From Ianthella basta (Eukaryota > Porifera > Demospongiae > Verongiida > Ianthellidae), in NCBI GenBank assembly GCA_964019415.1, contig OZ025875.1:6765306-6829305 (forward strand): DNA of 64,000 nucleotides, written 5' to 3'. The translations under genes were made by a program, and so were the position numbers. Of the stretch, positions 250 through 64,000 are shown piece by piece; the first letter of the stretch is position 1, and every line of letters starts with the position of its first letter. The notes beneath the pieces are model-generated. The model saw only the letters and a program-made list of their open reading frames with translations. It searched no databases and was not told the origin of the DNA.

Positions 250-3200
250 CTGTTGTGTTCAGTGGTACAGTTGGTGTATGAGAACCTGTGCTTGTACTAG
301 ATGGTCCAGGTGGTTTAGCCATACTTGTACTTGATGTACCTGTCAGTGCATTGGAGCTAGTGTTTGGGTGTCCAGGTGGTGTAGGTGAAGTTGGGTCTGG
401 ACAATTATGGAATTATAAATTTTAGTAATAAGTGATTCAGAAAATATTAAACCTGACAATAACACTAGTATTATTATTATGAATGCATAAACATCTCTAA
501 AAAGTAAAATTGATGTAAAATTTATACAAACTTAATATTATGACATAATTTGACAAATGCACATTAGTTGTTCCTGATGTGTCTGAATATTTGAATAGGG
601 ATGAAAACAAAGCAATAAAAGCATACCACATACATGTACACTAGTACTCACCAGGTGGTGTGTGGTTGTTCTGTGCTATTACTGCACTCCTGTCTGACAT
701 CCCAGCTGAGTTGACAGCCTGTACTGTAATGTTGGTGTACACTCTGTTCCTCTCAAGTCCTGTCAAGTTGTAGTGGGTCAGGTTGCTCCCAGTGTCAATT
801 GACTGTTCAATGCCACCTTCTGGTGTGCAGTATATGACATAGTGCAGTACCTCTCCATTGGGTTCAGTAGGAGGTAGCCAGTTCAGTTCTATTCCATCAT
901 CAAACACCTTCGTAACAGATAAGTGCCTTGGTGGTGATGGTCCTGCAGTGAATCACCAATATACTTAGTGTAGCTGAAAGAGAGGAATAGCCTACAGCTA
1001 CTTAGTTGTGTATTGTTGCATTTAAGTAGGGTGCTGCAGTATATTTCATATATGCCATAATGTATCATGACCCAAACCCCAATGGCCAACAACCATTGAA
1101 TGATGTAGGGCTCTCATCTGTGATGATTTGTGATTCTAACTGTATTACAGTATACATACTTTTAGGAAGATGTTATTATAGACACTTTTATTAATATTAT
1201 TATCTAATTACTGTCAACTTGTATGGTAGAATACAGTGTGTGTTGCCAAAGTGAGGAATCTGTGCTCTTGGCATATTGCTGCATGCTTTCTATTCCTATC
1301 CTCTAACTCTCTGATGAGTATAGTGTACATCTTGTATATATCGAGTGCCTATATAATTATCCTTATTATCCTAATTATTATGAAGCTATCCAACATGCAG
1401 GGTGAACATAGTAGATTGCATAACTCACTTGACTCTCCAGTAGTAACACGCTTTCTTGCTGGTGTTGCACTCCTCCTAGTACCACTGTCAAGTGCCCATG
1501 CTGTAATCCTGTACTGAGCACCTGGTACTGCAGGGTTGATTGTAACTTTACTCCGTTTTTTTGCATTCGCATACTTTCCTATCATTGGTACTCCAAAGCG
1601 GAATACCTTGTATCCAGCAATAACAAGAGTTGTTGCCATGTCACTCCTCTCCACATGGTACTCCACACCTGTACTGGTAACTGTGTTGACAGTGAGTCTT
1701 GGGACACTGAGAGGATCTGAATAGTAAGTAATGTAACATAATGAAATAATACTCATCTTATGTGACACACACAGCAAAAGTATACAAGAAATAATAATAA
1801 TTTTCTACAAAAATAGTAAGAATGTAGGGATGGCAAAAAAGTACAGAAACAAGTAAAGGCTGTTACACAGTGGAGCATTAACCATGGTCCCTACATGCAA
1901 GAATGTCACATCGTATATATATAGTCCTACACCCTTGAATGTAGGGACGATAGTTAATGCTCCACTGTGTAACAGCCTTTACTTGTTTCTGCACTTTTTA
2001 TGCCATCCCTACATTCTTACTATTATAATTGTAGAAAATTTCTATTATTTTCTGTTTTTGCACTTCTTATAGAACATGAGCTAAGAGGCACAATAATATT
2101 ATAGCTATCTAACTTCCTTGTATAGCTCCTGATAGAATTAGCTGCAGTTTGCATTTAAGAAATGGCATTGACATTGTAAATAATTCATTCCACAAGCCAA
2201 ATGCCACGCTAAGTAGTAGAGCAAGGCGAAGCAAAACAACGGAAGAAGGAGCCTCCGGAAGAAGGAGCCTCCGGAAGCTGTACGCAGCTGCTCGCAATGG
2301 CACCCGACTGTTTCATTCTGTTGAATTACGTAAGGTAAAAATGGCGTTCGCCCCACTCGGCTAAGCAACATGGCGGGAGTCGTGGCAAGCGTGTCTTCCG
2401 CACTAAATTGCTCATCCCCGGAGGAACAGCCCAGGCTGCCCAGGCCATGGAATGACCAGATTTTTAGGTCTTCCCTTTTTCATAGTTAAGGTACTTCCTG
2501 GCCTGTGCAACTGGCCATCAAGGATAAATAGCTAATGTTCCGACTTGGCCTGACCACCTTTAAAGTGCTTCCTCCGGGCATTATCCTGGTCCCATTGGAG
2601 TGCACGCTGCAGCAAGCAAATGTAAGCTTACCTAAGGGCATGCCATTGAATTGAGGGTGCGTGGGAAGAAATTCAATGGCATGCCCTTAGGCAAGTTACA
2701 TTTGCTTGCTGCAGCGTGCACTCCAATGGTGGCGGTGCAGGTTCTGACCAGCTGTAACTTGCGCTGGTGGTCTTTTTCTTCAGCCATCGAGCGCATTTAC
2801 TTTCTGGCACATGTGGTGGTGCGAATGGTGCTGGTGCCACTGTAACTTGCACTGGTGGTCTTTTTCTATGACCAACTAGTGCAGATACTCTACTGGCACA
2901 TGTGGTGGTGGCTACTGTAACTTGCACTGGTGGTGCTTTTTTTCTATGACCAACTAGCACAGATACTTTACTGGCACAGGTGGTGGTGGCTGCGATATTG
3001 TAACTTGCACTGTGTGGTGGTGGTAGTGGTGTTTTTTTCTAGAGCAATGGCACATATACTGAATGCATGCGTTGTACTGGCACCATGTGGTGGTGGTGGT
3101 GGTCATTTTCATCTAGGAATGCATGTGGTGGCCGTAATACTGTAACTTGCACTGTGTGGTGGTGGTGGTAGTAGTATGTGGTAGCAGCGCCTGATGTGGT

Positions 3201-6200
3201 GGTCTGTTTTCTTGCAGCTCTAGCACATAATATTATACTGGTGTGCTCATTGCAACTTCCACTGTGGTGGTGGTGATGGCAGTTGTATTTATCTATGTGG
3301 TGGTGTAGTAGCTGGATATTGTGGCTGGATAGTTGTGAGCAAGTGTACATGTTGGTGCTGCTCTGCTCCAGCATAGCGGCAAATGCCTACAAATTGGTTT
3401 AAAAATGTGATTGTTCAAAACATCGCCTCCATTTTGTGACTAATTAAGCAATACTGCTAATGACATGAGGAAACTGGTCATCTAACTTCATCCACTTAGT
3501 ATCATGGCTTAGCAGGGCTGGGTCGGTAAGATATGCAATGAACCTCATTTTTCTTGGCCATTTTGCAACTAATTAAGAAATCCTGCTAATGACATGAACA
3601 GTTGGATTATCTGGCTAGGTCCATCAAGTGTCATGACTGAGCGGGCCGGGCTGGTTGAATACATCATACACCTCGCATGTCGGCCATTTTGAGACTAATT
3701 AAGAAATCCCGCTAATAACATAGGAAGGTGGACCACTTGGATGTGTCCACCAAGTTTGACGTCTCAACGAGCCCAGTTGCATTAATATACAAGATACCAC
3801 TATGCATCAATATAAATGCACCATACAATAAGTGTTATGCTATGCACATTTATATTAGGATTTTGCGGGCTGCTTGTACAAGAACGAAGACCTAATTAAA
3901 AATTCTGCCTCATTTAAAAGTCTTAAAATCTCCCATACTTCAAAGGCACACCTATCACATGTTCGTGAGGGGTGCCTAACCCCCCGGGAATTATATTATA
4001 TTATATTATATTATATTATATTATATTATTTACTTTAGATTAGTGGTGTATATTGTAACTTGCACTGTATATACGTATATATAAACACATTCACACACTG
4101 AAGAAGTTCCCAAATTGAATTACTTGCTAACTTTGCATGTAATCACGTGTAGTGTATGTACTAACTTGTGCTTGAGATGAACAGATAGAAAAAGTTGGTA
4201 GCAGACGAAGTGCAGTACAGGTCCCTGTTGTAATTTTAATAACATTACATGCAATCACGTCTACTGTGTCTACTAACTTGCACTTGAGATGAACAGATAG
4301 AGGAAGTTGGTATTGATATTGGTGCAGTACAGGCCTCTGTTTTGGAAACTGCCAGCATCAGTTGTATTCACTACTAGTGTTGCTGTAGCTCCATTTCTTG
4401 TCTGAGTCACTCCTCCAGTTTCTAGTTGTCCTCCATTGGCAACAAACCAAGCTGTTCCACTGCTGACAGTGCAGGTGATTCTCCCAATCCTTTCTGGACC
4501 AGATATCTGTTGTGAATCAGTTATGGGGAACTCATGAGGTATGAGTCTCCCAAGGCCGTGGACGACACTACCACCTACAGGGTTTGAGAGGATACAAAAT
4601 TAAAAGTGCAACGGCTATTTCATTGAGCAGGTATGAACACATGAGAAGAACCCCATCTAGGAGAAGACATAGTACCATACTTCACTAGCCAATATGAAAT
4701 GATTATTGACAGACGCACCTTTCTGTTTATAACTATGGCCACTGAAGAAGACAACCACATGCATGCATGATTTCCAAAGCAGTACAATACAATACAGTCA
4801 ACTCAATGAAGCAGAAGCAGTACAATTGGCAATACAAGTTAGCTAGTATCTGGATTAGAAACAAATCGGCATGAAAGTGCAACTTACATACCACTGACAC
4901 TGAACGTGAAGCTCCCATTAGCTTTCTGTCCTTCTGTAGCTGTCACCTGACAGGTGTATGTCCCTCCACCACTTGTGGAAGTTGTGTTGACAGCCAAGAT
5001 GTGTTCATTGTAGACCTTTCCACCATAATACCCTTCTAGTTCACATAGTCCATTTGGACAGGTCCAGGTGTAGCTGAGTGGTGTTCCATAAGGTAGACCA
5101 ACAACCTGACAGACTAGGAGGAGTTGAGTTCCAAGGGGAACTGTGTCCCCAGACATGAGGATACTGTTGATTGTGTAGCCATCAATCACAGCTGTAGGAG
5201 ATTCTATTATCAAATCAATACAGTTAATGTGCACTGACATATGACTTGTGCATGCACTCTGTAAATTATCCTATGCTTGTATGTAACCAGCCAAGGTACC
5301 TGTTGCTGAAGGAGGCATTGTCTACTCACGGAGGGAGATGTATTTTGCTCCCTAGTACTGTAATTATTGGTTAAACTACACAATGTGATTCAGCACGATC
5401 CCACCTAGCCACTCAGAAATTCACAGTAAGATACAAGATACTAGACTGAAGTTACATACTCTTTTCTATTTACTCTACATGTGTACCATCAGCGGTCAGA
5501 CATGTTTGCAATCGCGTATTTACAATATCTGTGCTTGCACTGATGTACTCATCGTTATCTACAAACTTCTGAGTGTTTCCATCAGCCCATGTTTGGAGCT
5601 GTTGATGATAACTTGTAATGGACACAGCTGGTGGTATTCTGAACTACGTAGGTAATTAGAATGGAGTGGAGTGGAGTGGTCACTATAGTAGCACACTGTT
5701 TGTACATTGTGCAAGAGTAATGTATAGACAATGAATGCATGTATTTCCATGTTTTAGCCTGATAGAGAGCTATATTGTAGCTGATGCTACTGTAGCAATC
5801 ACTACTTTGCACCATTTTAAGTGTGTAAGTCTGTAAGTACATTAACTCCAGTACAATGAACGGCATTCGCTGATGACACAACCGTATTTCTATCTGGGAA
5901 GGACATTTTCAAGTTGAATGAAGCTCTACAAACCTGTCTACACAATGTCAATACATGGATGGTAACCAATGGTCTGAAGTTGAACCTATTCAAAACCAAT
6001 TCAATGTTGATTCACTCCTATCGCAGAAAGAACCTGCAACTACTCCTTCTACAGCTAAATGGAACCACTATAGAACAGGTGCGTGTCTTCAAATTTCTGG
6101 GTGTTTTAGTCAATGACACCCTCACATGGAGTGACCACACTGATTATGTCACCTCTAAGGTTGCTCGAAACATCCACCTTCTTCGAAGATTGTCTTGGTT

Positions 6201-6952: not shown

Positions 6953-7007
<55 letters not shown>

Positions 7008-7423
7008 TTGATTGTCACATAAAAGAGGAGTATATGATAATCATAACTTGGTAACATACACCCAATTACTCATGACAATAAAGATTATACAGTACATAAA
7101 CACCAATAAGTCACTTTGTATTGTAATGTATTGACAGCTTTAGTGTACACAAATGCCACATAGCTTATTTCTCAATTCTGCAGCTAATACATTATGTGTT
7201 AGTCCCTGAAATGGCTACTTCTAAGACTATTCATTGTGTGAATTTGCCTCCACACTCAAACTGCCAAAAGTGGGGTAATGAGCTGGAATACTCTTGTGTG
7301 TGTCTGAAGAAGGTATTCAGCTTTATAAACAATGAATATTATCTCACTTGTTACACAACACCCTGACAGCAGTCCAGCTACCAGTGGAAGAAGACACCAG
7401 ACTGAGCCTACTCCTCTCTCCAT
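250..7423 (-). CDS. Ig2-FN3-2 transmembrane receptor, array copy A (3' end off window)
   Basis: Coding exons on the minus strand, in transcript order: signal peptide 7423-7348, Ig1 5203-4892, Ig2 4574-4278, FN3a 1716-1429, FN3b 942-652, linker 396-250. The membrane/tail exon must lie just left of position 1, because bases 1-100 match the flank of the tail exon in copy B (about 9390). The signal peptide starts MERGVGSVWCLLPLVAG. Ig1 has VCQVVG, YTWTCP and GGTYTC around the two core cysteines. FN3b has the family's NWLPPTEPNGEV and LTGLERNRVY motifs. Donors are GTGAG, GTATGT, GTTAGT, GTGAG, GTGAG and GTAAT; the exons sum to 470 codons plus one base, matching phase 1 throughout. The linker (49 codons, Ser/Thr/Pro-rich) is the longest intact one in the array. 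A type I surface receptor is inferred. Intron Ig2-FN3a carries repeats and insertions, and intron 1 carries a LINE. Confidence 0.8.
397..651 (-). other. Intron between FN3b and linker of copy A
   Basis: AT-rich intron with no recognised repeat. The donor is GTGAGTACTAG after the FN3b exon and the acceptor is TTGTCCAG before the linker. Confidence 0.7.
943..1428 (-). other. Intron between FN3a and FN3b of copy A
   Basis: Ordinary AT-rich intron; donor GTGAGTTATG, acceptor CACTGCAG. No mobile element was recognised in it. Confidence 0.65.
1787..2053. mobile_element. Foldback (MITE-like) element with arms of about 90 bp
   Basis: The left arm around 1787-1905 is repeated in inverted orientation around 1930-2053; for example GGAGCATTAACCATGGTCCC on the left pairs with the complement of the right arm, and both ends carry TTTTCTACA. 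There is no coding capacity. It lies in the Ig2-FN3a intron of copy A, and the same element sits at the homologous place in copy F (about 44488-44754), so it predates that duplication. Confidence 0.7.
2054..2591. other. Intron sequence shared by copies A and F, CpG-richer than its surroundings
   Basis: From about 2100 to 2580 the sequence matches 44760-45300 closely, including a GAAGGAGCCTCCG block that is doubled here and single in F. It contains GGCGGGAGTCGTG and other CpG-rich stretches that look like an old transposable element, but no protein or structural hallmark allows a family name. Confidence 0.5.
2592..2729. repeat. Near-perfect palindrome of about 138 bp
   Basis: CCATTGGAGTGCACGCTGCA at the left end is the complement of the right end (TGCAGCGTGCACTCCAATGG). 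The arms continue inward through CAAGCAAATGTAA and GGGCATGCCATTGAATT around a short loop near 2655. It is absent from the corresponding place in copy F. Confidence 0.85.
2730..3370. repeat. Degenerate minisatellite, unit roughly 80-130 bp
   Basis: CTGTAACTTGCACTGGTGGT or a close variant recurs near 2752, 2838, 2916, 2999 and 3139, with GTGGTGGTGG runs and ACTGGCAC between copies. Open frames here are products of the repeat. The block lies inside the Ig2-FN3a intron of copy A. Confidence 0.65.
3428..3790. repeat. Three tandem copies of a ~127-bp unit
   Basis: CCATTTTG(T/C/A)(G/A)ACTAATTAAG followed by CTGCTAATGACAT recurs with starts near 3429, 3558 and 3684. The copies differ by scattered substitutions. 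It is absent from the homologous intron in copy F. Confidence 0.75.
3990..4030. repeat. (TTATA)n pentanucleotide microsatellite
   Basis: About eight uninterrupted copies of a five-base unit. Confidence 0.9.
4166..4230 (-). pseudogene. Duplicated 3' end of the Ig2 exon with its own donor
   Basis: These ~65 bases repeat the last part of an Ig2 exon (CTCAAGCACAA before a GTTAGTAC donor) and break off after CAGGGAC. They closely match copy F at 46819-46880, whereas the real Ig2 exon beginning at 4278 has sequence closer to copies D and G. Without an acceptor it cannot be spliced in as an exon. Confidence 0.65.
5204..5844 (-). other. Intron 1 of copy A, acceptor-side part
   Basis: Holds the block CCCATGTTTGGAGCTGTTGA with TGGACACAGCTGG (about 5586-5632), which recurs in intron 1 of copies B, C, D, E, F and G. 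Its recurrence may be common ancestry alone; a splicing or regulatory role is unproved. Confidence 0.5.
5845..6905 (+). mobile_element. 5'-truncated LINE (reverse transcriptase C-terminal half)
   Basis: From 5863 the plus-strand frame reads AFADDTTVFLSGKD, containing the FADD catalytic box of non-LTR reverse transcriptases, then LNEALQTCLHNVNTWM and FKFLGVLVNDTLTWSDH, and stops at a TAG at 6223-6225. The frame resumes with FFKSYIMPSIDYCVVVWD. The 3' end is a non-coding tail ending AACCAAATAAATAAGAG. It is inserted in antisense orientation in intron 1 of copy A and has a counterpart in copy F, so it is dead and older than the duplication. Confidence 0.85.
6938..7008. repeat. (TG)n microsatellite in intron 1 of copy A
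   Basis: About 70 bp of alternating TG with two GAGTG interruptions; it lies directly after the LINE tail, as in copy F. Confidence 0.95.
7348..7423 (-). CDS. Signal-peptide exon of copy A
   Basis: The exon runs from the ATG to a GTGAGATAAT donor and encodes 25 residues plus one base. It has Met-Glu-Arg, then WCLLPLVAGLLSG as the hydrophobic core, then CCVT. Identical length and near-identical sequence in eight other places of the window support it as the true first coding exon. Confidence 0.85.
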
Positions 7424-8330: not shown

Positions 8331-9295
8331 TCATTTCTGCTGCCTGTCCACCACAGCATAATCATAGTTGCCATCCTGAGTTGGAGGTACAGCTCCACCT
8401 TTGGTGTTGTAGTACTGTTCCCCATCAGGGACAAAGGGAGGGGGTACTTCAGGAATGTCTTCATTATCCTCGTCTGCCTCTTGCATCACTTCCACATGCT
8501 TCTTGTAGGGAAGGGGTGGTGTAGGAACAGGCTTCCTCTCCTCACTCTCCTCACTCTCCTGCTCCAAGTGCTGCTGGCTTCTCTTGTCCTTCTTCTTGGT
8601 CATGTCTGGTTTGGCATACAAATCATCACATGGGGCTGGTACGTCTTCACTGGTGACTTCAATGTCTTTTTCTGTGCTCATATTCTTTTTCCTGTTCTTT
8701 GCCTTGTCAGGTTGGGCATAAAGCTCTTCTGGCTTCATCACTTTGGTGCTGGCATTCTTCTTCTTCTTCACTTTGTCAGGCTGAGCATAAAGTTCCTCTG
8801 GTGTTGCCACTTTAGAACTGTCCTTCAAAGCAGATTGCTTCTGCTTTGAAATGGTATCTTTCGCTGAGTCTTCATGACACCCCCCACTACCCCATTTCTG
8901 CTCAACTTTAACCTCTTCACAGTGACCTTCCCCACCTGCAGCAAACAGTCTTTGATCCATCTCACTGTAATTGGCAGAGTCATACACATTAGCGCTGAAG
9001 GAAGCAGTGGCAGATGCTGGGTTGATGAAGATGTTCTCAGCAGTGGCATAGTCATGTGCATCCTCATTGTGTCTTGAACTTTCAGAGGGTTGATGTCTTG
9101 CATCTTGGCAAGTGTAAGCATTGTCTGCAATGTCTTCAATTTTAGGTGGTCTATCTTCTTCATCGGGTTGAGACTCAGCAGTTTGCTTAGTCTTCACCTT
9201 TCTCCTTGCCTTCACCACAACTGCTAGCACTCCCCCCACCAGTGAGAGGAGGAGGAGGACCACCAGGAGGGAGACCACCACACCAGCTATAAGGG
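8331..9295 (-). CDS. Membrane and cytoplasmic-tail exon of copy B
   Basis: Begins after acceptor TTCTCCAG with ALIAGVVVSLLVV, a transmembrane helix of about 25 residues, then the stop-transfer sequence KARRK. Tail motifs by exon residue: DYATAENIF near 83, VYDSANYSEV near 105-110, three YxxP motifs (YAQP 170, YAQP 193, YAKP 227) each followed by D and a lysine cluster, PVPTPPLPYKK near 256-266, PEVPPPFVPD near 283-292, EQYYNT near 295, and NYDYAVVD near 311-317. pYxxP is the ligand type of Crk-family SH2 domains and pYxN of Grb2; the proline runs suit SH3 domains. Those partners are inferred from motif knowledge. The 5' half of the tail is acidic and the YxxP part is strongly basic. Confidence 0.85.
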
Positions 9296-12200
9296 CTGGA
9301 GAATAAAACAGAGATGGCTAGGTATGCACATAGCTGTGATGGGCTTAAGGCTAAACACAGTATACATCTGCTACACTGATACAATAGCTCTAACTGAGTA
9401 ATGTATGTAGAAGTGACCTTGTAATGATTATACAGTAGATGCATGAGATGTGTATACTTGTAGATAGCTTACTTGAGTAGTAGATATAGTGTGGTAGTAT
9501 AATATATTATTCATTCTGTGTTATGATGTGAAGATGTTATTCATGCATTTGTGATTAAAACTATACCAGTTTATGGTTTGACACTTTTGTTTAACAAGTA
9601 ATTTTGTATGACTATGTATGCAGCAGCTGCTGTGGCGTTACCTGTTGTGTTCAGTGGTATAGTTGGTGTAGGAGAACTTGTGCTTGTACTTGACGGTACA
9701 GGGGGATGCATGTCTGGTACATCTGACAGTTGGAGGAAGGTGTAAGAGGACAAAGTACTCTCTTTCAACAAGTGTATTACACCATTGCTAGGTACACTGC
9801 AGCTATAATCCATCAACCAATGTGGTGTATCAAGTTAAGATGATAAGCAAAAGGTGCCACCTTTCTTCCAGCCCTGTGCCACTCCAAACATCTATGGACA
9901 GTAATAGCCCCGATTGAGTCTTAATTAGACATGTCACCTATCCACCTGTCCACCTATCTATCCATCTTCTGATGTAGCCCATTCCACTGGAACTAATTTT
10001 ATTACGCTTAAGACTCACACAGCAATTATCCTGTAATCTAGCAACAACACGGCTATACACAGAGCACTATGTAGCTCCCTAGGTTACTACCTTTCACTTG
10101 TACAGTTACATTAGCACACAGTACCTAGCTGTACAGACAGCATTATCTGGCAGAGGCAGAGATTGACATATGTATGCACAACAGTTTGATTATGCATTCA
10201 AGTGCATAGAATTATTAATGCATGAACAGCATACAACTGTATGTACGGTACTCAGTGAATGCTACATCATTACCTGCTGTGCTAGTTGGTGGTGTAGGGG
10301 AAGTTGTGCTAGATGGTCTAGGTGGTGAAGGGATAGCTACACTTGATCTACCTGGTGGGGCATTGGAGCTAGTAATTGGGGTTCAGGTGTACGTGGTGCA
10401 GAGATGCTCGTGTTTCCCAGTCTAGGTGATATAGTGGAAGCTCTATTTGATGGTCCAAGCGGTGTAGGGGTCTGGATAATTATGGAATATGTATAATTAC
10501 AGTAATATGTGAACAGATTAAACCTGACACTAACACTATTATTAATACATAAACCTCTCTAAAGTCTAAATCCAATACAATAATACGTATGACATAGTAT
10601 GATAATTGCATATTTTTATATATTATATAATTGAAATCTCGGGCCAATGAATTAATTGCAGCATAAATTCCAGATGTGTCTGCATATCTGAATAGGGATC
10701 AAAGTTGCAAATGAGTTTTCAAAAGCAAAGCATTGAAAATACACCACACACTTGTACATGAGCACTCACCAATTGGTGGTGTGTGGTTGTACTGTGCTAT
10801 TACTGCACTCCTGTCTGACCTCCCAGCTGAGTTGACAGCCTGTACTGCAATGTTGGTGTACACCATGTTCCTCTCAAGTCCTGTCAAGTTGTAGTGGGTC
10901 AGGTTGCTCCCAGTACTACTGTTCTGTTCTGAGCCACCTTCTGGTGTGTAGTATATGACATAGTGCACCTCTCCATTGGGTTCAGTAGGAGGTAGCCAGT
11001 TCAGTTCTATTTCATTCTCTAATGCCCTAGTTACAGATAGGTACATTGGTGGTGTTGGTGCTGTAGGGTGGACAGTGTTGTACATGGTATGAGTGACCAA
11101 ATAGAACTGGCGAAGAGTGATGGTGGTATATAGTAGCTGGAATGATGCTATTGAATCCCAATACATAGCTTGGAATACCACAGCTAGATTCATTAGCAAG
11201 TTATGTATATTATTGTCTTGCACATTATGCCCATTACTGCTGTGGCTGCTACACATGTGATGCATATTATACAAAATGCTCAGTCGAGTCTACACTCACT
11301 TGTTCCTCCAGTGGTAGCACTCTTCACTGCTGGTGTTGCACTCCTAGTACCACGGTCAAGCGCCCATGCTGTAATCCTGTACTGAGCACCTGGTACTGCA
11401 GGGCTGATTGTAACATTCCTCCCTTTACCAGTATTTACATACTCTCCTATCATTGTTACTCCAAAGTGGAATACCACATATCCAGTAATGACACGAGTTG
11501 CTGCAGTGTCACTCCTCTCCACTCGGTACTCCACACTTGTACTGGTAGCTGTGTTGACAGTGAGTGTTGGGACACTGAGTGGATCTGAATAGTATAAGCA
11601 GTGCATTAGCTGCAGTACAAGTGTCACACACAAGCACATACACAAATGTAGCTGTAGCACATGCTTGAATATATGACAATATGTACATAAATTATTCAAC
11701 TGTCATGTTCTACAGTAGCTCTTTTTGGGGCGCCGAAGGCGCCCCTATATTGTTTTCAGATTTAGGTCTTCGTATGGCTTCATGTTCGTATATATATATA
11801 TATATATATTTCTGTCATTTTGCAAATGGCGGCGCTCACGTCGTTCTTTACAAAGCTTTAAACCCTCTCTAATGACGTTTCGCCGTGTTTGAATCGAACG
11901 ATATGTGGTCATAAACATGTGTTAATAGAGTGATACTAATAAAAAGCCTAAGGAACGTCTCTTCTGCGAGATACAGCTCCAATTATCACTGACGGACATT
12001 GTAAAATGGCCGCGCGCTCGACGCTTTCTGTTTGCTAGGCTCAAAACCATTCTCTTTAGATTTCGCCGTGTATCCAAAGAACGCAAAGTGTTTCTAGAAG
12101 ATGTTTAAGTAATATTATTGTGGTAGGAAGCTTACTTAACTGTTTTTCTGCGAGGTACAGTACAGCCCAAAATACAACAGAAGTCTAGTGACACGTAGGC

Positions 12201-15200
12201 CAATAATGGAGGACCAGCGAGTCATGACATAATTATAGCCATGATTCGCTCATATAGTCATCATAGGGTAGCCTTTTAGCCAGCACACTCCTCCAGGCAC
12301 AAAGTAACAATTGCTCATTTAGAATGTCATATAGATCAAAAAGCAGTAGGCAAACATTTGACAGTTTGGTAGGGATGCTTTCACTGGATATGACTGGCTG
12401 CTCTGGAGACTTGAAACTTTTGCAAACCCAACGGTCTAGTGTGTCTTGATGTATCTTTCAGGCCAACAACAATACTGTACCCCCAACTATCTGATTTACT
12501 GAACGTACATGGGAAAATTGCTAGCAAGTAGTTCGAGGTTCAGGGGCGCCCTGGCGCCCCACGAGTTTTTTAACTCGAAATACTTGTTGTCTCAATATTA
12601 TTGGTAAAAAGTTCGTAATCAATATACAATGGTATGCTGTCTCAGAATGGCACTGTGTTTAGCTGCCACCTCCCAAAAAAACAGACAGCCTCCCTGGCCC
12701 CAAGTAGCACTAAAGCATTGCAATCTACCTCTATAGAGCGGCCACCCCTCTATAAAGTTAAGTTAGAACTGGACAACAGGCACGCGGTTGTTCTAGACAG
12801 GTATTATGATAGCATTTTCGCCACATATGTACACCATGCAGACAGATCATGAATGTAAATCATCAACACAGGTCTCCAGCCCCATCATCAGTTTCAATTC
12901 AGGGCTTTCATTCACTTTTCAACCTTCTCTTGCCACAACATCATTTACTATGTATTACTGGTATTATACTTACTGCCATGTTCAGTTTCATATAATTCAC
13001 TAATATGTACTAATGCAAGCCCTCACAGTCATAGAATCCTGTTGAAGCTTGATGCATTGAAATTTTGCTCAATATTCCTTATTACAAAGTGCATGGCATT
13101 GTCATTAATGTTCCTTAATTCATTTTACTCAGCATCAGTCAGCATGTAGCTGTTGTGAACACTAGTATTATTGCATAGAATGAATAGACTGGCATGTTTT
13201 GGTAGTACTGACGAGACAAAGAATGGATACGTATGAGAACAGAAAAACTCAATGTCTTCTCTACACTATCTTCAGAGCAACTTTACGACATGCTGAATAC
13301 TACTCTAACCATACTCTAACCATATGCACACTTTCTGATGATGCATCATAATCTATGACATCACACTGTCATTCAAGCAAAATCAACTCTTAGATTATTC
13401 AATCTGGCAAAGGAAACATTCCACAACCACACCTTCACACCTGAAATCATGTACAATAACAACACTTGGATGGAAGGTTGCACAATGTGTACACTACATT
13501 TAATCATGTGTACTAACTTGCACTTGAGATGGACAGAGAGAAGAAGTTGGTAGCAATATTGGTGCAGTACAGTTCTCTGTTTTGGAAACTGCCAACATCA
13601 GTTGGATTCACTACCAGTGTTGCTGTAGCTCCATTTCTTGTATGAGTCACTCCTCCAGTTTCTAGTTGTCCTCCATTGGCAACAAACCTAGCTGTTCCAC
13701 TGCTGACAGTGCAGGTGATCCCCCCAATCCCATCTGGACCAGATATCTGTTGTAGATCAGTTATGGGGAACTCATGAGGTATGAGTCTCCCAAAGCTGTG
13801 GACAACACTACCGCCTGAATGTTGAGAGTGTAAGAGTGCAATTATTATATACATACGTAGGAACACACCACTTGCTCATGTGCTTATTAGCATACAGCTA
13901 TACATAGTAATCACATACCAGTGACTCTGAGTGTAAAGCTTCCATTAGCTTTCTGTCCTCCTGTAGCTGTCACCTGACAGGTGTATGTCCCTCCATCACT
14001 GATGGAAGTTATGTTGACAGCCAAGATGTGTTCATTGTAGACCTTTCTACCATAGTACCCTTCTACTTCACATGGCTTGTTTGGATAGGTCCAGGTGTAG
14101 CTGAGTGGTGTTCTATATGGTAGACCAACAACCTGACAGACTAGGATGAGTTGAGTTCCAAGGGGAACTGAGTCTCCAGATGTGAGGACACTGTTGTGTG
14201 TGTAGCTGTCAAGCACAACTGCAGGAGACTCTACTGTATATTAAAATCATTACAAATTGCATACTGGGAATTAGCATGTTCCTAGCAATTTAACAGTCTA
14301 TTATTCTGCAAGGGACATATTTTGCTCGGAGTCACTACTTTATAGTACTGGAAGTACCCTAAGGCTACTAATTTCACTGATACTGATTTCAGCACATCTT
14401 GCATGTAGTGAAAACTTTGCTAAAACTTTGTCTCCTAAAATTTTAATGGTAATGCAGGCAAAATGTTTATGCACAGAAACACTTAAAAATGTTAAAATTA
14501 CCGGTAGTACCCACAAATTCCTGGACTTTCAAAACACTAAATTATATTGTCATGAAAATTTGTATATACCCTTAATTAAGGTAACTATTATTAATGGTGA
14601 CATGGCTGTCATTGGCACTTCCATCTTTGATAGCTTAAGGAACAATCCCTGATCATAATTACCACTCAATAAAACTGAGTGCACAGTTACCACATGCAAT
14701 CGCTACCCCTAACAATGGTTGCCAGTAAATGATCACGAGAAAGGTTCTAAGCAGATTAATCTTCCGCCTCTGCTCTATGAACTCTATACACCTAGCTGCA
14801 TACACATCCCTCTCTGATGAACATGATTCTGAATGTGTATCATCTGGCCATTGGACTCTGTGTGTATTTACATCAGCATTATCCATGCACTAATGTTCTC
14901 TTTGTTATCAGTCTACAAGTCCTGAATGTTTACTTCTGCCCATGTTTGGAGCTATTGATAATCGATGGTACACAGTTAATCTTATCTCTTGCAACTAAGT
15001 GGAGCTAGAAAATGGTTCAGCATGTACAGCTGCATCTGTTTTATATATAGTATTTGTGTACACACACTCTGTATATATGTATGGACTGCTGCAGTATACA
15101 CTTCCGGTCACATGCCCGAGGTTGCAGCTTTGCGCAGATTCAAGGTTTGCGCACAACATATACATTGCATGAGTCTGGCATGCATGTAGGGGACTGTGCA

Positions 15201-15806: not shown

Positions 15807-15901
<95 letters not shown>

Positions 15902-16297
15902 TGTGTGTGTGTGTGTGTACATCTATCTGCCAATACTGCAGTATACATTTTTGCATGTCACATGAAAGAAGAATAAAATAAATATACTGATCATAGCTTA
16001 GTAGCATGCACTCAATCATTCAATATGCATACACACTAATAAGTCACTTCATATTCTAGTGTATTCAGTTTTTGTTTGCTGATTGACAGTGTACACAAAT
16101 GACGCATACCTAATCTCTCAATTCTACAGGTAAATAATATGTGTTTGTCCCAGAAATGACTAGAATTAAGTCTCCTCATTGTGTGAATTTGCCTCTACAC
16201 CCAAAGTAGCCGATTACTCACCAGTTGCACAACGCCCTGACAGCAGTCCAGCTACCAGTGGAAGAAGACACCAGATTGAGTCTACTCCTCTCTCCAT
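8331..16297 (-). CDS. Ig2-FN3-2 transmembrane receptor, array copy B (complete)
   Basis: Coding exons in transcript order: signal 16297-16222, Ig1 14230-13919, Ig2 13814-13518, FN3a 11584-11300, FN3b 11060-10770, linker 9722-9642, membrane/tail 9295-8331. They join in phase 1 with GT-AG borders to a frame of 768 residues. The signal peptide begins MERGVDSIWCLLPLVAG. Ig1 has the extra cysteines of its C-strand region as CEVEGYY, but the usual CPNGPC pair reads YPNKPC, so one cysteine is missing. Ig2 has NCTVSS/ITCTVSS and LYCTN but no core tryptophan. The protein should be a type I surface receptor: two Ig, two FN3, short mucin-like stalk, one helix, long tail. A second linker exon (10274-10471) is present but unusable. 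The Ig2-FN3a intron carries a transposable element missing from copy G. Confidence 0.82.
9642..9722 (-). CDS. Linker (stalk) exon of copy B
   Basis: Twenty-seven codons rich in Ser, Thr and Pro (DVPDMHPPVPSSTSTSSPT and onward), with acceptor AACTGTCAG after a pyrimidine tract and donor GTAACGCC. It probably forms an O-glycosylated stalk next to the membrane. Confidence 0.75.
9723..10273 (-). other. Intron between the distal and proximal linker exons of copy B
   Basis: AT-rich intron. Compared with copies D, G and H it lacks several hundred bases near 9830, where GTGGTGTATC joins directly to AAGTTAAGATG, indicating a deletion here or insertions in the others. Confidence 0.5.
10274..10471 (-). 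pseudogene. Dead distal linker exon in copy B
   Basis: The sequence is clearly a Ser/Thr/Pro linker (repeated CCTACACCACC/TCTAGCACA blocks) with acceptor TTATCCAG and donor GTAATGATG, but in the phase-1 frame shared by all other exons it reaches TAG after nine codons, and an internal indel shifts frame again. Because neighbouring exons share phase, it can be skipped without harm. Confidence 0.65.
11585..13517 (-). other. Ig2-FN3a intron of copy B
   Basis: Carries a hairpin-ended insertion at about 11722-12588. The remainder (12589-13517) is ordinary sequence shared with copy G at 56110-56840. No coding potential was recognised in it, despite short chance frames such as 12634-12852. Confidence 0.6.
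11722..12588. mobile_element. Non-autonomous element with GC-rich terminal hairpins (copy 1)
   Basis: The left end has the hairpin GGGGCGCCGAAGGCGCCCC followed by TATATTGTTTTCA and a TA tract. The right end is a nested palindrome: CAAGTAGTTCGAG pairs with CTCGAAATACTTG around GGGGCGCCCTGGCGCCCC. Copy G has an empty site at about 56108-56130 (TGTCATGTTCTGGCTCCTTT then GTCTCAATATC), so this is an insertion of about 870 bp. No clear target-site duplication was seen. Terminal hairpins without target duplication recall Helitrons, but the diagnostic CTRR end was not found. A relative lies at 32730-33950. Confidence 0.65.
14231..16221 (-). other. Intron 1 of copy B
   Basis: Shares nearly all its length with intron 1 of copy G (57552-59489). 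It contains the conserved CCCATGTTTGGAGCT block near 14939 and a long TG tract at 15809-15918. Nothing coding was recognised. Confidence 0.6.
15809..15918. repeat. (TG)n microsatellite in intron 1 of copy B
   Basis: About 110 bp of TG with one TACG interruption; the homologous tract in copy G is at 59003-59141. Confidence 0.95.
16222..16297 (-). CDS. Signal-peptide exon of copy B
   Basis: Twenty-five codons plus one base, ending ...LLSGRCAT before a GTGAGTAATC donor. The start is the only ATG in frame with the hydrophobic core. Confidence 0.85.
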
Positions 16298-23628: not shown

Positions 23629-31116
<7,488 letters not shown>

Positions 31117-32854: not shown

Positions 32855-33199
<345 letters not shown>

Positions 33200-46606: not shown

Positions 46607-46736
<130 letters not shown>

Positions 46737-47857
46737 AACACATTCACACACTGAAGAAGTTCCCAAATTGAATGGCTTGTTAACTTCGCATGTAATCACG
46801 TGTAGTGTATGTACTAACTTGTGCTTGAGATGAACAGATAGAAGAAGTTGGTAGCAGACGAAGTGCAGTACAGGTCTCCATTTTGGAAACTGCCAATATT
46901 AGTTGGATTCACTGCCAGTGTTGCTGTAGCTCCATTTCTTGTCTGAGTCACTCCTCCAGTTTCTAGTTGTCCTCCATTGGCAACAAACCTAGCTGTTCCA
47001 CTGCTGACAGTGCAGTTGATCCTCCCAATCCCGTCTGGACCAGATATCTGTTGTAGATCAGTTACAGGGAACTCATGAGGTATGAGTCTCCCAAGGCTGT
47101 GGACGACACTACCACCTACAAGGATTGAGAGGATACAAAATTCAAAGTGCAATGGCCATTTCATTGAGCCCCATCTAGGAGAAGACATAGTACCATACTT
47201 CACTAGCCAACATGAAATGATTATATGTCAGGTTACAATTAATAATAATAAATACAAAGGCACACATGCGCACTGCCTTACATGCTTAGAGTACAACAAT
47301 AGTCAAGTCAAATATACTGTTAAAGAGTGTATGTGATTAGCTAAATCAAGGATAAAATCAAGCACAATGTCAAAGTGAGTTTGAAATGAACATGATTATT
47401 GACAGAAGCACCTTTCTGTTTATAACTATGGCCACTGAAGAAGACAACCACATGCATGCATGATTTCCGAAGCAGTACGTTGGCAATACAAGTTGGCTAG
47501 TATCTGGATTAGAAACAGATCGGCATGAAAGTGCAACATACATACCACTGACACTGAGAGTGAAGCTCCCATTAGCTTTCTGTCCTTCTGTAGCTGTCAC
47601 CTGACAGGTGTATGTCCCTCCATCACTTGTGGAAATTGTGTTGACAGCCAAGATGTGCTCATTGTAGACCTTTCTACCATAATACCCTTCTAGTTCACAT
47701 AGTCCATTTGGACAGGTCCAGGTGTAGCTGAGTGGTGTTCCATAAGGTAGACCAACAACCTGACAGACTAGGATTAGCTGAGTTCCAAGGGGAATTGTGT
47801 CCCCAGACATGAGGATACTGTGGTTTGTGTAGCCATCAATCACAGCTGTAGGAGATT

Positions 47858-49520: not shown

Positions 49521-49554
49521 AGCATACCCATCAATGTACATTAAGAGTGTGTTT

Positions 49555-49697
<143 letters not shown>

Positions 49698-50033: not shown

Positions 50034-50109
50034 TTGTTACACAACACCCTGACAGTAGTCCGGCTACCAGTGGAAGAAGACACCAGATTGAGCCTACTCC
50101 TCTCTCCAT
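50034..50109 (-). CDS. Signal-peptide exon of copy F
   Basis: Intact 25 codons plus one base (MERGVGSIWCLLPLVAG..., ending SGCCVT), donor GTGAGATAAT. Confidence 0.83.
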
Positions 50110-51035: not shown

Positions 51036-59565
<8,530 letters not shown>

Positions 59566-60502: not shown

Positions 60503-61386
60503 TCATTTCTGCTGCCTGTCCACCACAGCATAATCGTAGTTGCCATCCTGAGTTGGAGGTCCAGCTCCACCTCTGGAGTTGTAATACTGTTCCTCATCAA
60601 AGGGAGGGGGTACTTCAGGAATGTCTTCCTCATCCTCATCTGCCTCTTGCATCACTTCCACGTGCTTCTTGTAGGGAAGGGGTGTGGTAGAAACAAGCTT
60701 CCTCTCCTCACTCTCCTGCTCCCAGTGCTGCTGGCTCCTCTTGTCCTTCTTCTTGGTCATGTCTGGTTGGGCATACAAATCATCACATGGGGCAGCTACT
60801 GTAACATCTTTTTTGGTGACTTCAGTGTCTTTTTCTGTGCTCACATTCTTCTTCTTTTTTGCCTTGTCAGGTTGGGCATAAAGTTCCTCTGGCATTGCTA
60901 CTTTACAACTGTCCTTCAAAGCAGATATATTCTGCTTTGACAGTGCACTTTTCACTGAATCTTCATGACACCCTCCACCACCCCATTTCTGCTCAACTCT
61001 AAACTCTTCAAAGTGACCTTCCCCACCCGCAGCGAACAGTCTTTGACCCACCTCACTGTAATTGGCAGAGTCATACACATTAGTGTTGAAGGAAGCAGTG
61101 GCAGATGCTGGGTTGATGAAGATGTTCTCAGCAGTGGCATAGTCATGAGCATCCTCATTGTGTCTTGAACTTTCAGAGGACTGACGTCTTACATTATGAC
61201 AAGTGTAAGCATTGTCTGCAGTGTCTTCAGTTTTAGGTGGTCCATCTTCTTCATTGGATTGTGACTCAACAGTTTTCTTTGACTTCTTCTTTCTCCTTGC
61301 CTTCACCACAACTGCTAGCACTCCCCCCACCAGTGAGAGGAGGAGGAGGACCACCAGGAGGGAGACCACCACACCAGCTATAAGGA
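60503..61386 (-). CDS. Membrane and cytoplasmic-tail exon of copy H
   Basis: About 294 residues, starting VLIAGVVVSLLVV. Membrane-proximal EEDGPPKTEDTADNAYTCHN is of the B/G type. There are only two YxxP motifs (PEELYAQPDKAKKKK and DDLYAQPD), as in copy D. VTVAAPCDDLY shows a small in-frame insertion and PPPFDEEQYYN lacks the VPDG of other copies. NYDYAVVDRQQK ends the protein. Confidence 0.85.
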
Positions 61387-64000
61387 CTAGAGAATAAAAC
61401 AGAGGTGGCTGGGTATGCACATAGCTGTGATGGGCTTAAGGCAAAGCACAGTATACATCTGCTACACTGATACAATAGCTCTAACTGAGTAAAGTATGTA
61501 GAAGTGACGTTGTAATAATTATACAGTAGACGCATGAGATGTGTATACTTGTAGGTAGCTTACTTGAGTAGTAGATATAGTGTGGTATAGTATAATTATT
61601 CTGTGCTATGATATGAAGATGTTATTCATGCATTTGTGATTAAAGCTATATCACTTTATGGATCCACACTTTTGTTTAACAAGTAATTTTGTATAACTAT
61701 ATATGCAGTAGCTGTTGTGACATTACCTGTTGTGCTCAGTGGTACAGTTGGTATATCTGTGCTTGTACTTGATGGACCAGGTAGTGTAGGGGTACTTGTA
61801 CTTGACGGTACAAGGGGAGGTATGCCTGTGGAAAGTGTAAGCGGACAAGTACTCTCTTTCAACAAGTGTATTACACCATTGTTATGTACACTGCAGCTAT
61901 AATCCATCACCCTATGTGAAGTATTACAACTAATATATACCCTATGGCCTAATCAATTGATTGCAGCCGAATGGCACTACTTTGTTGTAATAAGGTGCAT
62001 TGTTGTTACAACAACTTTACATCTGTGGTGTTGACCATAGCCTTCCCCAGTTGCTTCTGTTGAAACCATAAGCATTAATGTAACTTGTAGTAGATTCAGA
62101 AGTAGTTCCTGTCAGTCATATACTAGTAAGTAACCATCAGCACATCACAATGATGAACCCTGAGTAGGATATTAAGGCAAACAGCTGTCTGGGCTCTTCC
62201 GCTAATGGATGACTGGTAGGCAGAATATATGGTTGCCATTAATAGACCATCCCCCGATCTTGCTAAGAGGCTAATAGGTACCATTTGAAGGAGATGCCCA
62301 ATTGCAAGGTAGCCAGTTCATCGCCTTATGGTATGCCATGTATACATATGCCAGCTCAGCCAACCCAACATTGATCAGTTTGCTCAGTACCGTTTAATCA
62401 CGCCTACAATGTAATGTCTGTGACCCTAAGTCATGGTTGTACTAATTTTGCTACAGCATACAGTGGACATGGTTGGAAGGTAAAACTACTAAAACAGTGA
62501 TGTGCGTAGATAATTATGATGCTGGCACAATATCTAACTTTCAACATTCACGTGCCATAGCAATGATATGGCACATGAATGGTGCCACCATTCTTTCCAG
62601 CCCTATATATGCCATTTCAAAGGTCTATGGACAGTAACAGCCGCGATTGAGTCTTAATTAGACATGTCATCTATCCATCTTCTGATGTAGTCCATTCCAT
62701 CGGACCAAACTTTATTATGCTTAAGACTCACACAGCAATTATCCTGTAATCTAGCAACAACACAGCTATACACAAAGCACTACATAGCTCCTTATGAATG
62801 CATAAATGTCTCTAAAGTCTAAAATTCATGTAAAATTTATGCAAACATAAGGCATGAAAGACATTGCTTGAAATTACACATGGTAAGGAAAGAGGGGGGA
62901 GAGAAAAATGGCAGCGAACCAGACCAGCAAAAGCAACCTCTGGATTTCAGCCAACACTTTAGCAGTGGCTGTTGGCAGTGACCAGTGACCCGGCTGCTAA
63001 AGGGTTGGCTAATATGAAGATCTAGAGGTTGTCTTTGCTGGTCCCATTCACTGCTATTTTTCCTCCCCCTCCCCCCTTCTTTCCTTACCATGTGTGGTTC
63101 CAAATGTTGCCTTTCATTCATGTCACCATAGTACATAGACCATCATAAATAGTTAAACATATGACATAATATATATATATATATATAGAATGATTATTAG
63201 AGTGACCGCAGCATGAGAATCAGAGGCTGCTCAGCCAAGGTTGGCTTACTGGTCACTGAAAAAATTTTTTTACAAAAATTAGCTTGCAGGTGAAAGTGGA
63301 TAGGTGAGTATACATAGTGACTATACACTAATTGATGCATAAAAGTGATTGCCTTAAATGGTACATTTGAAGAATAAGGGATATGGTTGTATTATCAGTA
63401 TTCGTTAAGAGGAACTTACATTTGTCATAAGAAGAAAGATTTGTAAATGAGTTTGATAGAGTTAGGCAATGAGAAAATAATTTTTGTCTAACAGAGCTAA
63501 GAGTGTGGCAGATGATTAAAAAGTGATGCTGATCCTCCACCTCCCCACAATTACACAGTCTACACACCCTATCACTACAGGGTGTCCCAGTGTACCTCCC
63601 CACCTCCACCGCCAGGGGCAGGCATCCCGCTCGGAGGCCCGCCATAACTCTCCTACCCCCCAGTGATCTCATAGTGAATAGATAGTCCTCTGTACCTGGA
63701 CCATGTTTAATTTGCCTATATAACACTAGTCTACCACCTGAATCAGAGCCTACTGGAATTTCGCTAATATGACTTATGCATATTAGAAGACATATCAGAA
63801 CAATTATGCTTGCCACAAAAATTCCTGATGTGTCTGAAAATTTGAATAGGGTTCAAAGTTGAGTATGAGTTTTTTCAAAAACAAAGCCTTGAAAACATAC
63901 CACATACTCGTACATGAGATCTCACGAGGTTGCTCATGGTTATTCTGTGCTATTACTGCACTCCTGTCTGACCTCCCAGCTGAGTTGACAGCCTGTACTG
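60503..64000 (-). CDS. Ig2-FN3-2 transmembrane receptor, array copy H (5' part off window)
   Basis: Visible exons: FN3b from 63926 to beyond 64000 (partial), linker 61825-61727, membrane/tail 61386-60503. The FN3b donor reads CCTC before GTGAGATC, weaker than the GTGAGTGC of copy D. Linker and introns follow copy D, while the 3' flank and the membrane-proximal tail follow the B/G type, so the unit is a mosaic. A 5'-truncated LINE is inserted in the linker-FN3b intron. The remaining exons (signal, Ig1, Ig2, FN3a) should lie to the right of the window. Confidence 0.78.
61727..61825 (-). CDS. Linker (stalk) exon of copy H
   Basis: Thirty-three codons, GIPPLVPSSTSTPTLPGPSS and onward; donor GTAATG. 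Confidence 0.75.
62852..63120. mobile_element. MITE-like element with inverted repeats, second copy
   Basis: Counterpart of 25985-26250 with a shorter C run (CCTCCCCCTCCCCCC). Confidence 0.72.
63169..63768 (-). mobile_element. 5'-truncated LINE insertion in copy H
   Basis: The minus strand encodes the end of a non-LTR retrotransposon protein: GLRAGCLPLAVEVGRYTG, then a CRLCNCGEVEDQHHFLIIC cysteine-histidine motif, ending LRQSLLCIN. Its 3' end is a (TA)n tail at 63169-63187. Copy D has the empty site (ATGACATAATATGACTAATG near 26283), and TAATAT occurs at both ends of the insertion as a possible short target duplication. Confidence 0.82.

What the first reader, a model, noticed from the sequence alone, without database searches (positions are those of the whole stretch)
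250..64000. Head-to-tail array of nine Ig/FN3 receptor units with tyrosine-motif tails: candidate recognition gene complex
The sequence directly shows seven-exon units repeated on one strand over 64 kb, running off both edges, each encoding signal, Ig, Ig, FN3, FN3, stalk, helix and a long tail with YxxP, YYNT and YxxV motifs. In established knowledge, clustered polymorphic Ig/FN3 receptors with tyrosine tails mediate self/non-self recognition in colonial invertebrates (for example the Alr cluster of Hydractinia). By inference this could be an undescribed, independently evolved allorecognition or immune receptor cluster.
Basis: partly seen in the sequence, partly recalled or inferred. Interest (0 to 1): 0.92.

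Follow-up and report, generated by a model that had tools for sequence, protein, structure and literature searches.

The report
Sponge cell-surface receptor gene complex
The window is a piece of a very large cluster of probable sponge genes for cell-surface receptors that share one outer part but carry different inner signalling tails, which makes it a candidate for how a sponge tells friend from foe, although no function has been tested.

Summary
The array is real. The window holds seven ectodomain-bearing units, one edge-cut unit and one remnant, all on the minus strand: signal, Ig1, Ig2, FN3, FN3, Pro/Ser/Thr stalk, helix plus tail. Four of the seven look intact. The genome (209 Mb) is very probably a sponge's: its 21 kb mitochondrial contig carries atp9 and nad4. 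The window is a small part of a complex spanning C8 6.26-7.65 Mb, with further blocks on C3, C4, C16 and C20 and at least 178 Ig1 matches. The main finding lies outside the window: the same ectodomain is joined to different tails in different blocks. The window's tails are YxxP/YxN docking tails; others carry tandem YxxL (ITAM-like) or YAVVDKS repeats. In C8 7.26-7.46 Mb, genes with the last two tails alternate (28 of 32 neighbours; shuffle p 5e-6). Strict ITAM and ITIM definitions are mostly not met. Best reading: phosphotyrosine-signalling recognition receptors, a new variant of a known kind. Allorecognition is possible and untested.

The parts
59490..59565 (-). unit A (Ig1 at 57551): signal exon
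   Evidence: MERGVGSIWCLLPLVAGLLSGCCAT, GT donor in phase 1
57240..57551 (-). unit A: Ig1 exon
   Evidence: Pfam Ig_2 3.8e-8; AG/GT phase 1-1
56841..57137 (-). unit A: Ig2 exon
   Evidence: open 98 aa, conserved splice sites; Ig-like model of low confidence
55698..55985 (-). unit A: first FN3 exon
   Evidence: profile of six such exons matches fibronectin chains, best 8e-6; splice sites
55158..55457 (-). unit A: second FN3 exon
   Evidence: Pfam fn3 2.6e-13; splice sites
54628..54714 (-). unit A: Pro/Ser/Thr stalk exon (placement less certain)
   Evidence: chosen by composition between FN3 and helix
51039..51999 (-). unit A: helix and tail exon, frameshifted
   Evidence: matches in more than one frame
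50034..50109 (-). unit B (Ig1 at 47845): signal exon
47546..47845 (-). unit B: Ig1 exon (acceptor may lie a few codons upstream)
46819..47115 (-). unit B: Ig2 exon
44026..44480 (-). unit B: remnant of first FN3 next to the tail's C-terminal part; second FN3, stalk and helix lost
42883..42958 (-). unit C (Ig1 at 41062): signal exon
40760..41062 (-). unit C: Ig1 exon (acceptor may lie a few codons upstream)
   Evidence: Pfam Ig_3 4e-7
40324..40575 (-). unit C: Ig2 exon, normal acceptor not found
   Evidence: 83 aa instead of about 98
39324..39614 (-). unit C: first FN3 exon
   Evidence: Pfam fn3 0.0021, below the curated cut-off
38278..38568 (-). unit C: second FN3 exon
   Evidence: Pfam fn3 1.3e-14
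37933..38007 (-). unit C: stalk exon (placement less certain)
36310..37193 (-). unit C: helix and tail exon, ends before the YAVV motif
   Evidence: 293 aa open; QDSK then stop
35422..35497 (-). solo signal exon of a lost unit
   Evidence: genome 6800727-6800802
31940..32032 (-). solo tail end (YDYAVVDRQQK) of a lost unit
31041..31116 (-). unit D (Ig1 at 29095, intact): signal exon
28787..29095 (-). unit D: Ig1 exon
28207..28503 (-). unit D: Ig2 exon
26965..27255 (-). unit D: first FN3 exon
26449..26736 (-). unit D: second FN3 exon
24848..24976 (-). unit D: stalk exon
23629..24512 (-). unit D: helix and tail exon
   Evidence: 293 aa open; YAQP, YAKP, YYN, C-terminal YAVV
22629..22704 (-). unit E (Ig1 at 20875, intact): signal exon
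20564..20875 (-). unit E: Ig1 exon
20189..20479 (-). unit E: Ig2 exon
19364..19654 (-). unit E: first FN3 exon
19004..19294 (-). unit E: second FN3 exon
18479..18583 (-). unit E: stalk exon
17221..18176 (-). unit E: helix and tail exon, three YxxP
   Evidence: 317 aa open
16222..16297 (-). unit F (Ig1 at 14230, intact): signal exon
13919..14230 (-). unit F: Ig1 exon
13518..13814 (-). unit F: Ig2 exon
11300..11584 (-). unit F: first FN3 exon
10770..11060 (-). unit F: second FN3 exon
10274..10336 (-). unit F: stalk exon (placement less certain)
8331..9295 (-). unit F: helix and tail exon, three YxxP, YYNT, YAVV
   Evidence: 320 aa open
7348..7423 (-). unit G (Ig1 at 5203, intact): signal exon
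4892..5203 (-). unit G: Ig1 exon
4278..4574 (-). unit G: Ig2 exon
1429..1716 (-). unit G: first FN3 exon
652..942 (-). unit G: second FN3 exon
250..396 (-). unit G: stalk exon; its helix/tail exon lies just outside the left edge
   Evidence: tail at genome 6764256-6765205
63858..64000 (-). edge-cut unit: 3' part of its second FN3 exon
60506..61435 (-). edge-cut unit: open frame (310 codons) holding the helix and tail exon, which starts near 61386

Best explanation
These are single-pass cell-surface recognition receptors of a sponge. SHOWN: a shared Ig1-Ig2-FN3-FN3-stalk ectodomain, in tandem arrays over about 1.4 Mb of C8 and in blocks on four other large contigs, with a different tyrosine-bearing tail in different blocks. 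INFERRED: the ectodomain binds a ligand on another cell or a microbe. Ig1 and the second FN3 would be the constant scaffold, kept alike by exon-wise gene conversion; Ig2 and the loops of the first FN3 would be the variable face. Binding would let Src-type kinases phosphorylate the tail. The window's tails would then act as docking tails for SH2 adaptors (YxxP for Crk/Nck types, YxN for Grb2 types, C-terminal YAVV/L; motif meanings recalled). The neighbouring tandem-YxxL tails would act like ITAMs, and the YAVVDKS tails would give a different, perhaps opposing, signal. The alternating genes with near-identical ectodomains would then work as paired receptors. Ligand and biological role (allorecognition, microbe sensing, or both) are unknown.
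For: Exon order, splice phases and open frames in 25 units over 250 kb: 17 with every domain exon at standard length (one of them with a different, short tail), 3 with one odd exon, 5 damaged (my tally; in 4 of the 20 undamaged units the stalk exon was not confidently found). Tail tyrosines among listed tails with a residue there: Y181 100% and Y216 99% of 119, Y94 93% of 118, C-terminal Y 94% of 98. YxxP in 119 of 120 against 70.8 shuffled, YxN in 104 of 120 against 49.1; dN/dS 0.16 at ELYAQPDK. Same ectodomain with other tails: C8 7.19, 7.41, 7.44, 7.46 and 6.36 Mb, C16 and C4; C3 has a shorter relative of the window's tail. Alternation of two tails in 28 of 32 neighbours (positions), read directly in L042. 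Mosaic exons: synonymous distances of Ig1 do not track those of Ig2, either FN3 or the tail (r -0.03 to 0.14), while Ig2 and the first FN3 do (0.66). P0045, on one of them, is 48-58% identical to the near-full-length window-type tails here, so it comes from another genome. SH2 domains, and two SH2-SH2-phosphatase layouts by coordinate, exist in this genome.
Against: No transcript, protein or phenotype was seen. Gene models rest on conserved splice sites only. No unit was tested for ligand binding. The strict ITIM pattern is hardly enriched in the YAVVDKS tails (47 of 120 against 39.4 shuffled; -2 residue Ala in 209 of 230 YAx[VIL] sites), the tandem-YxxL tails match it better (15 of 15 against 7.0), and canonical ITAM spacing is met in only 2 of 15 tandem-YxxL tails, so activating and inhibitory labels are guesses. 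dN/dS on paralogues under gene conversion is only descriptive. In the first FN3, dN is not significantly above dS (pN 0.137, pS 0.127, Fisher p 0.5).
Confidence: 0.72

Rival explanations
1. It is the sponge's allorecognition complex: polymorphic receptors compare self and non-self at tissue contact, using docking, tandem-YxxL and YAVVDKS tails to decide between fusion and rejection.
For: Large linked complex with tandem duplication, exon mosaicism and different tails on shared ectodomains. Botryllus FcoR and Hydractinia Alr genes use comparable logic (PMC12065747, PMC11067881, passages read). ENA contig 510101 carries 28 listed window-type tail clusters; 27 are 59-92% identical to their best match in the 250 kb I read, and one cluster, which spans two contigs, is 99.6%, while contig 878056 has tails up to 100%. 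It could be another haplotype.
Against: Ig1 is conserved, there are no population or phenotype data, and the contig may come from another individual or species; a baseline gene could not be fetched. Low best matches also arise because only 250 kb of the array was read.
Confidence: 0.3
2. It is a microbe-sensing or symbiont-tolerance receptor family, comparable in evolutionary style to expanded NLR and SRCR families of sponges.
For: Copy number with exon-wise mosaicism and more variable Ig2 and first FN3; sponges are known for expanded immune families (PMC12909245 passages; PMC10855680 listing).
Against: No ligand or expression evidence.
Confidence: 0.35
3. They are adhesion receptors for sponge matrix or aggregation factor with no recognition specificity; the copy number is neutral.
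For: The Ig1 profile's best PDB matches are contactin-2, NCAM, titin and other adhesion or muscle Ig chains; conserved Ig1 and second FN3.
Against: Different tail classes joined to near-identical ectodomains and their ordered alternation are not expected of plain adhesion genes.
Confidence: 0.2
4. Assembly artefact or decayed repeat array.
For: 5 of 25 units are damaged (my tally); one recent duplication of about 20 kb at 96.3-96.6% identity.
Against: Exons of different units differ by median dS of 0.17-0.49, with conserved splice sites and purifying selection on tails.
Confidence: 0.02

Closest known systems
Hydractinia Alr genes of the allorecognition complex (Cnidaria)
   Same: Clustered single-pass Ig-superfamily genes; [quoted passage not shown] ITAM/ITIM motifs on candidates (PMC12065747 passages).
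   Different: Here two FN3 domains follow two Ig domains in the whole units, tail classes are sorted into blocks, and two of them alternate gene by gene in one block. Homology was not tested with an Alr sequence; no chain so named is among the 25 PDB matches of Ig1.
Botryllus fester co-receptors (FcoR) at the fuhc locus
   Same: Multigene Ig receptor family (53 loci reported) with tails carrying ITIM, hemITAM or core YxxI/L/V motifs, the core motifs compared there to LAT and SLP-76 sites (PMC12065747 passages).
   Different: FcoRs have a V-type Ig, a sushi and two C2 Ig domains, per that paper; here Ig-Ig-FN3-FN3 and no sushi seen. Here different tails sit on adjacent genes, whereas at some FcoR loci splicing swaps them.
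Vertebrate paired receptors (KIR, LILR, CEACAM)
   Same: Nearly identical ectodomains with different signalling tails in one gene cluster (concept from PMC3533184 and PMC5112662, abstract starts in the listing).
   Different: Strict ITIM and canonical ITAM spacing are mostly not met; tandem YxxL lies in the receptor itself; the sign of the signal is unknown.
Geodia cydonium receptor tyrosine kinase with Ig-like domains
   Same: Sponge surface receptor with Ig domains (mentioned in PMC12018476).
   Different: No kinase domain matched the window tail or the L034, L035 and L042 tails; the short C8/C4 and the C3 tails were not scanned. Geodia Ig adhesion molecules (two Ig domains, recalled) could not be compared by sequence.
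Sponge aggregation factors
   Same: Candidate allorecognition molecules of sponges (cited in PMC12065747).
   Different: Secreted proteoglycan-core proteins (recalled), not Ig/FN3 receptors; no sequence comparison was made.

Membership tests
Paired activating/inhibitory receptors | Near-identical ectodomains joined to different tails in neighbouring genes | tested here: met
   Ig2 92% identical between the two genes of L042 with different tails; 28 of 32 neighbours alternate
Paired activating/inhibitory receptors | ITIM [ILVS]xYxx[ILV] in one partner | tested here: not met
   47 of 120 listed YAVVDKS-class proteins against 39.4 shuffled; -2 is Ala in 209 of 230 YAx[VIL] sites
Paired activating/inhibitory receptors | ITAM YxxL/I x6-8 YxxL/I in or beside the other partner | tested here: inconclusive
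   x6-8 in 2 of 15 (0.4 shuffled), x6-12 in 15 of 15 against 0.8 shuffled
Paired activating/inhibitory receptors | Opposite signals on ligand binding | not testable with these tools
   needs cells
Hydractinia Alr | Linked cluster of Ig-superfamily transmembrane genes | tested here: met
Hydractinia Alr | Tandem Ig ectodomain without FN3 (recalled) | tested here: not met
   FN3 exons in the whole units
Hydractinia Alr | Sequence homology to Alr1/Alr2 | not tested
   no Alr sequence was at hand
Hydractinia Alr | Alleles determine fusion or rejection | not testable with these tools
   no individuals or phenotypes
Botryllus FcoR | V-type Ig, sushi, two C2 Ig domains | tested here: not met
   Ig-Ig-FN3-FN3
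Receptor tyrosine kinases | Cytoplasmic kinase domain | tested here: not met
   no kinase match in the window tail or in the L034, L035 and L042 tails
Immunoglobulin superfamily | Ig fold in the ectodomain | tested here: met
   Ig1: Pfam 3.8e-8, contactin-2 1.1e-8; Ig2 only weakly (E 0.053; best E 0.048)

The most novel reading that the evidence does not exclude
Sponges have a genomically organised paired-receptor system: one Ig-Ig-FN3-FN3 ectodomain family is linked to ITAM-like tails, YAVVDKS tails and a third LAT/Cas-like docking tail. Two of these classes alternate gene by gene in a 0.2 Mb array, and the complex as a whole is the sponge's self/non-self recognition region. That would place paired-receptor logic in an early-branching animal lineage, by common origin or by convergence with Botryllus, Hydractinia and NK receptors.
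Probability: 0.28. Interest if true: 0.95.

Novelty: new variant of a known kind. Interest (0 to 1): 0.8.

Why it matters
[quoted passage not shown] If this complex signals as its tails suggest, it extends that convergence, or its origin, to sponges, and supplies named loci that can be typed in fusion and rejection tests. The ordered alternation of two tail classes on one ectodomain, linked to a third docking-tail class, is a clear, testable arrangement. I saw no description of it in the listings or in the passages of seven papers that I read; most listed papers were not opened and most subscription journals are not in the library.

Tried and rejected
Species name: not found. None of the 11 genome notes listed matches 209.09 Mb (nearest 211.92 Mb). 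A pattern for a recalled silicatein motif gave 9 sites; at the two I read the long open frames are not silicatein. Phylum rests on mtDNA atp9 plus nad4.

Ig1 diversity as the specificity face: rejected.

ITIM label for YAVVDKS tails: strict pattern rejected.

Alternation: my first shuffle, of all 41 tail matches in the block, gave p 0.00035 with 30 of 40 steps alternating; the per-gene count is. Before both I assigned to the A class 11 weak rows of the I query that overlap stronger A matches, assigned one weak A row to the I class likewise, and merged neighbouring pieces of one tail.

Unit 6684808 looked truncated but carries a different, short tail.

Structure of Ig2: single sequence pLDDT 53.7, seven-row alignment 60.8. 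Foldseek's listed matches are mostly Ig domains, best E 0.048, none below 0.001, so only weak support.

Contig 510101 as the other haplotype: left open; a baseline gene could not be fetched.

Limits of counts: 150 of 416 Ig1 candidates and 150 of 189 Ig2 candidates were scored, 138 of 450, 150 of 689 phosphatase candidates. The protein searches list 120 of 157 and 120 of 168 hits and 15 of 15; motif counts use the listed ones only.

Corrected on re-check: 54 long tail loci plus 7 pieces instead of about 55; identity ranges for contig 510101 and P0045; number of papers read.

Full report
WHAT IS THERE. The window is G000:C8:6765306-6829305 in a 209,087,449-base, 96-contig assembly. Exon-sized open frames on the minus strand repeat in the order signal, Ig1, Ig2, first FN3, second FN3, Pro/Ser/Thr stalk, helix plus tail. 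I read 250 kb around it (5 kb of it N). Twenty-five units with Ig1 lie there, all on one strand. Acceptors and donors line up in nearly all copies, and the inner exons are phase 1-1. By my tally, 17 of 25 have every domain exon at standard length, 3 have one odd exon and 5 are damaged; in 4 of the 20 undamaged units the stalk was not confidently found. Ig1 is an Ig domain. Both FN3 domains are supported. Ig2 is Ig-like only weakly.

WHOSE GENOME. Contig C96 is 21,233 bases and carries a 78-residue atp9 followed by a nad4-like frame with TGA as Trp (nad4 named by eye). That atp9 stays in mtDNA only in sponges among animals is recalled knowledge; with Ig/FN3 genes it makes a sponge very likely. 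I did not find the species name.

HOW FAR IT GOES. The window's tail matches 54 loci of more than 500 bases and 7 short pieces on C8 6.509-7.020 Mb, all minus (recounted), and weaker relatives on C3. Two short C-terminal matches lie on the plus strand near 6.27 Mb. Ig1 and Ig2 reach much further: C8 6.26-6.38 Mb (plus strand), 6.45-7.02, 7.18-7.26, 7.26-7.46 and 7.46-7.65 Mb (minus), and C3, C4, C16, C20. The union of two searches is 178 Ig1 matches, a lower bound because only 150 of 416 candidates were scored.

ONE ECTODOMAIN, SEVERAL TAILS. I read nine further stretches with one or two units each (L034-L042). The ectodomain order is the same, but the helix and tail change. Class F (window, C3): long tail with YxxP and YAVV/L, usually YxN. 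Class S (C8 6.26-6.49 Mb, C4, and one unit inside the F block): short tail with HYQELELGTMEGRQYESL or close variants. Class A (C16, C8 7.19-7.55 Mb): YQGLDVGTQDYVSVYxQL and variants, an ITAM-like tandem YxxL. Class I (C8 7.18-7.47 Mb, C16): repeats of AVYAVVDKSKK and EEQHYE. On C20 the ectodomain is followed by EGF-like repeats (named by eye). In C8 7.26-7.46 Mb, 33 ectodomains are followed by I or A tails in near-perfect alternation: 28 of 32 neighbours differ, 16.4 expected, p 5e-6 (positions; the overlapping weak rows that I reassigned are told in Tried and rejected). L042 shows one such A and I pair, the A gene cut within Ig1, and the two Ig2 domains are 92% identical.

CONSERVATION ELSEWHERE. 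The protein search found 157 relatives of the F tail, 168 of the I tail and 15 of the A tail; the listed ones are nearly all in unnamed ENA contigs. Contigs of 4,666,589, 752,796, 1,651,219 and 1,083,021 bases appear in both the F and the I lists, and 542,971 and 209,374 in both the A and I lists, so the classes are linked there too (contig length used as fingerprint). P0045, from the first of these, is 48-58% identical to the near-full-length F copies here (pieces and decayed copies 35-61%), as expected of another species; I infer that most F copies arose after the split. Contig 510101 carries 28 listed F clusters: 27 are 59-92% identical to their best match in my 250 kb and one, spanning two contigs, is 99.6%. 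It may be another haplotype, individual or species; I could not settle which.

SELECTION AND MOSAICS. Median identities between units: Ig1 0.82, second FN3 0.81, first FN3 0.68, Ig2 0.60, tail 0.58 (20-25 units per exon). Median dS is 0.17 for Ig1 and the second FN3, 0.19 for the first FN3, 0.48 for Ig2, 0.49 for the tail. The first FN3 has a dN/dS near 1, with windows up to 3.2, but nearest-pair dN is not significantly above dS (Fisher p 0.5). The other exons are under purifying selection overall (nearest-pair dN/dS 0.54-0.79), the tail most clearly at ELYAQPDK (0.16). Synonymous distance in Ig1 does not correlate with that in any other exon (r -0.03 to 0.14), while Ig2 and the first FN3 correlate at 0.66. 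For one pair, dS is 0.08 in the second FN3 and 1.07 in Ig2. Exons therefore seem to have separate histories, as expected under gene conversion, with Ig1 and the second FN3 homogenised and Ig2 left to vary.

MECHANISM. Shown: conserved tyrosines in class-specific motifs and SH2 domains in the same genome, including two SH2-SH2-phosphatase layouts by coordinate on C16 0.694-0.713 Mb. A Syk-family kinase is known from the sponge Amphimedon (PMC9601881 passages); I did not look for one here. Inferred: ligand binding, tail phosphorylation and adaptor docking; F tails as receptor-borne scaffolds comparable to LAT or Cas, A tails as activating, I tails as modulating. Strict ITIM and ITAM definitions are mostly not met, so I do not file these as ITIM or ITAM receptors.

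COMPARISON. Hydractinia Alr and Botryllus FcoR are the nearest working parallels; both differ in domain order. Vertebrate paired receptors are the nearest parallel for neighbouring genes with different tails. No homology to any of them was shown. Seven papers were read as passages (PMC12018476, PMC11067881, PMC12909245, PMC12065747, PMC11999971, PMC9505182, PMC9601881); all others were seen as listings.

VERDICT. A real, very large receptor complex of a probable sponge, described in none of the papers that I saw: a new variant of a known kind. The allorecognition reading is plausible but untested.

Noticed in passing
G000:C6 5.95-7.09 Mb and C12 5.4-5.9 Mb: Very large expansion of tyrosine-phosphatase domains: 689 candidates of PF00102, 150 scored; most of the listed matches lie on these two contigs.
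   Followed up: no
G000:C16 0.694-0.713 Mb: Two tandem SH2-SH2-phosphatase layouts by coordinate, resembling SHP-type phosphatases.
   Followed up: partly
G000:C4 2.80-3.42 Mb: Cluster of SH2 domains around the C4 receptor block at 2.900-2.924 Mb.
   Followed up: no
L037 (G000:C8:7405000-7412000): One ectodomain followed by both an A-type and an I-type tail exon with no second ectodomain seen between: deletion product or alternative splicing.
   Followed up: partly
L041 (G000:C20:455300-461300): The same Ig-Ig-FN3-FN3 order continued by EGF-like repeats, perhaps the source gene of the ectodomain (EGF named by eye).
   Followed up: no
genome C8 6835377-6855000 against 6855000-6873724: Recent duplication of about 20 kb spanning two units at 96.3-96.6% identity.
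   Followed up: yes
introns between signal exon and Ig1, e.g. genome C8 near 6864250: A conserved element without an open frame recurs in this intron in several units; repeat or regulatory.
   Followed up: no
window 5860-6225 (+) and 63328-63852 (-): Fragments resembling non-LTR reverse transcriptase (by eye).
   Followed up: no
window near 27900, 32830-33230 and 46520-46780: Long (CA)n/(TG)n arrays.
   Followed up: no
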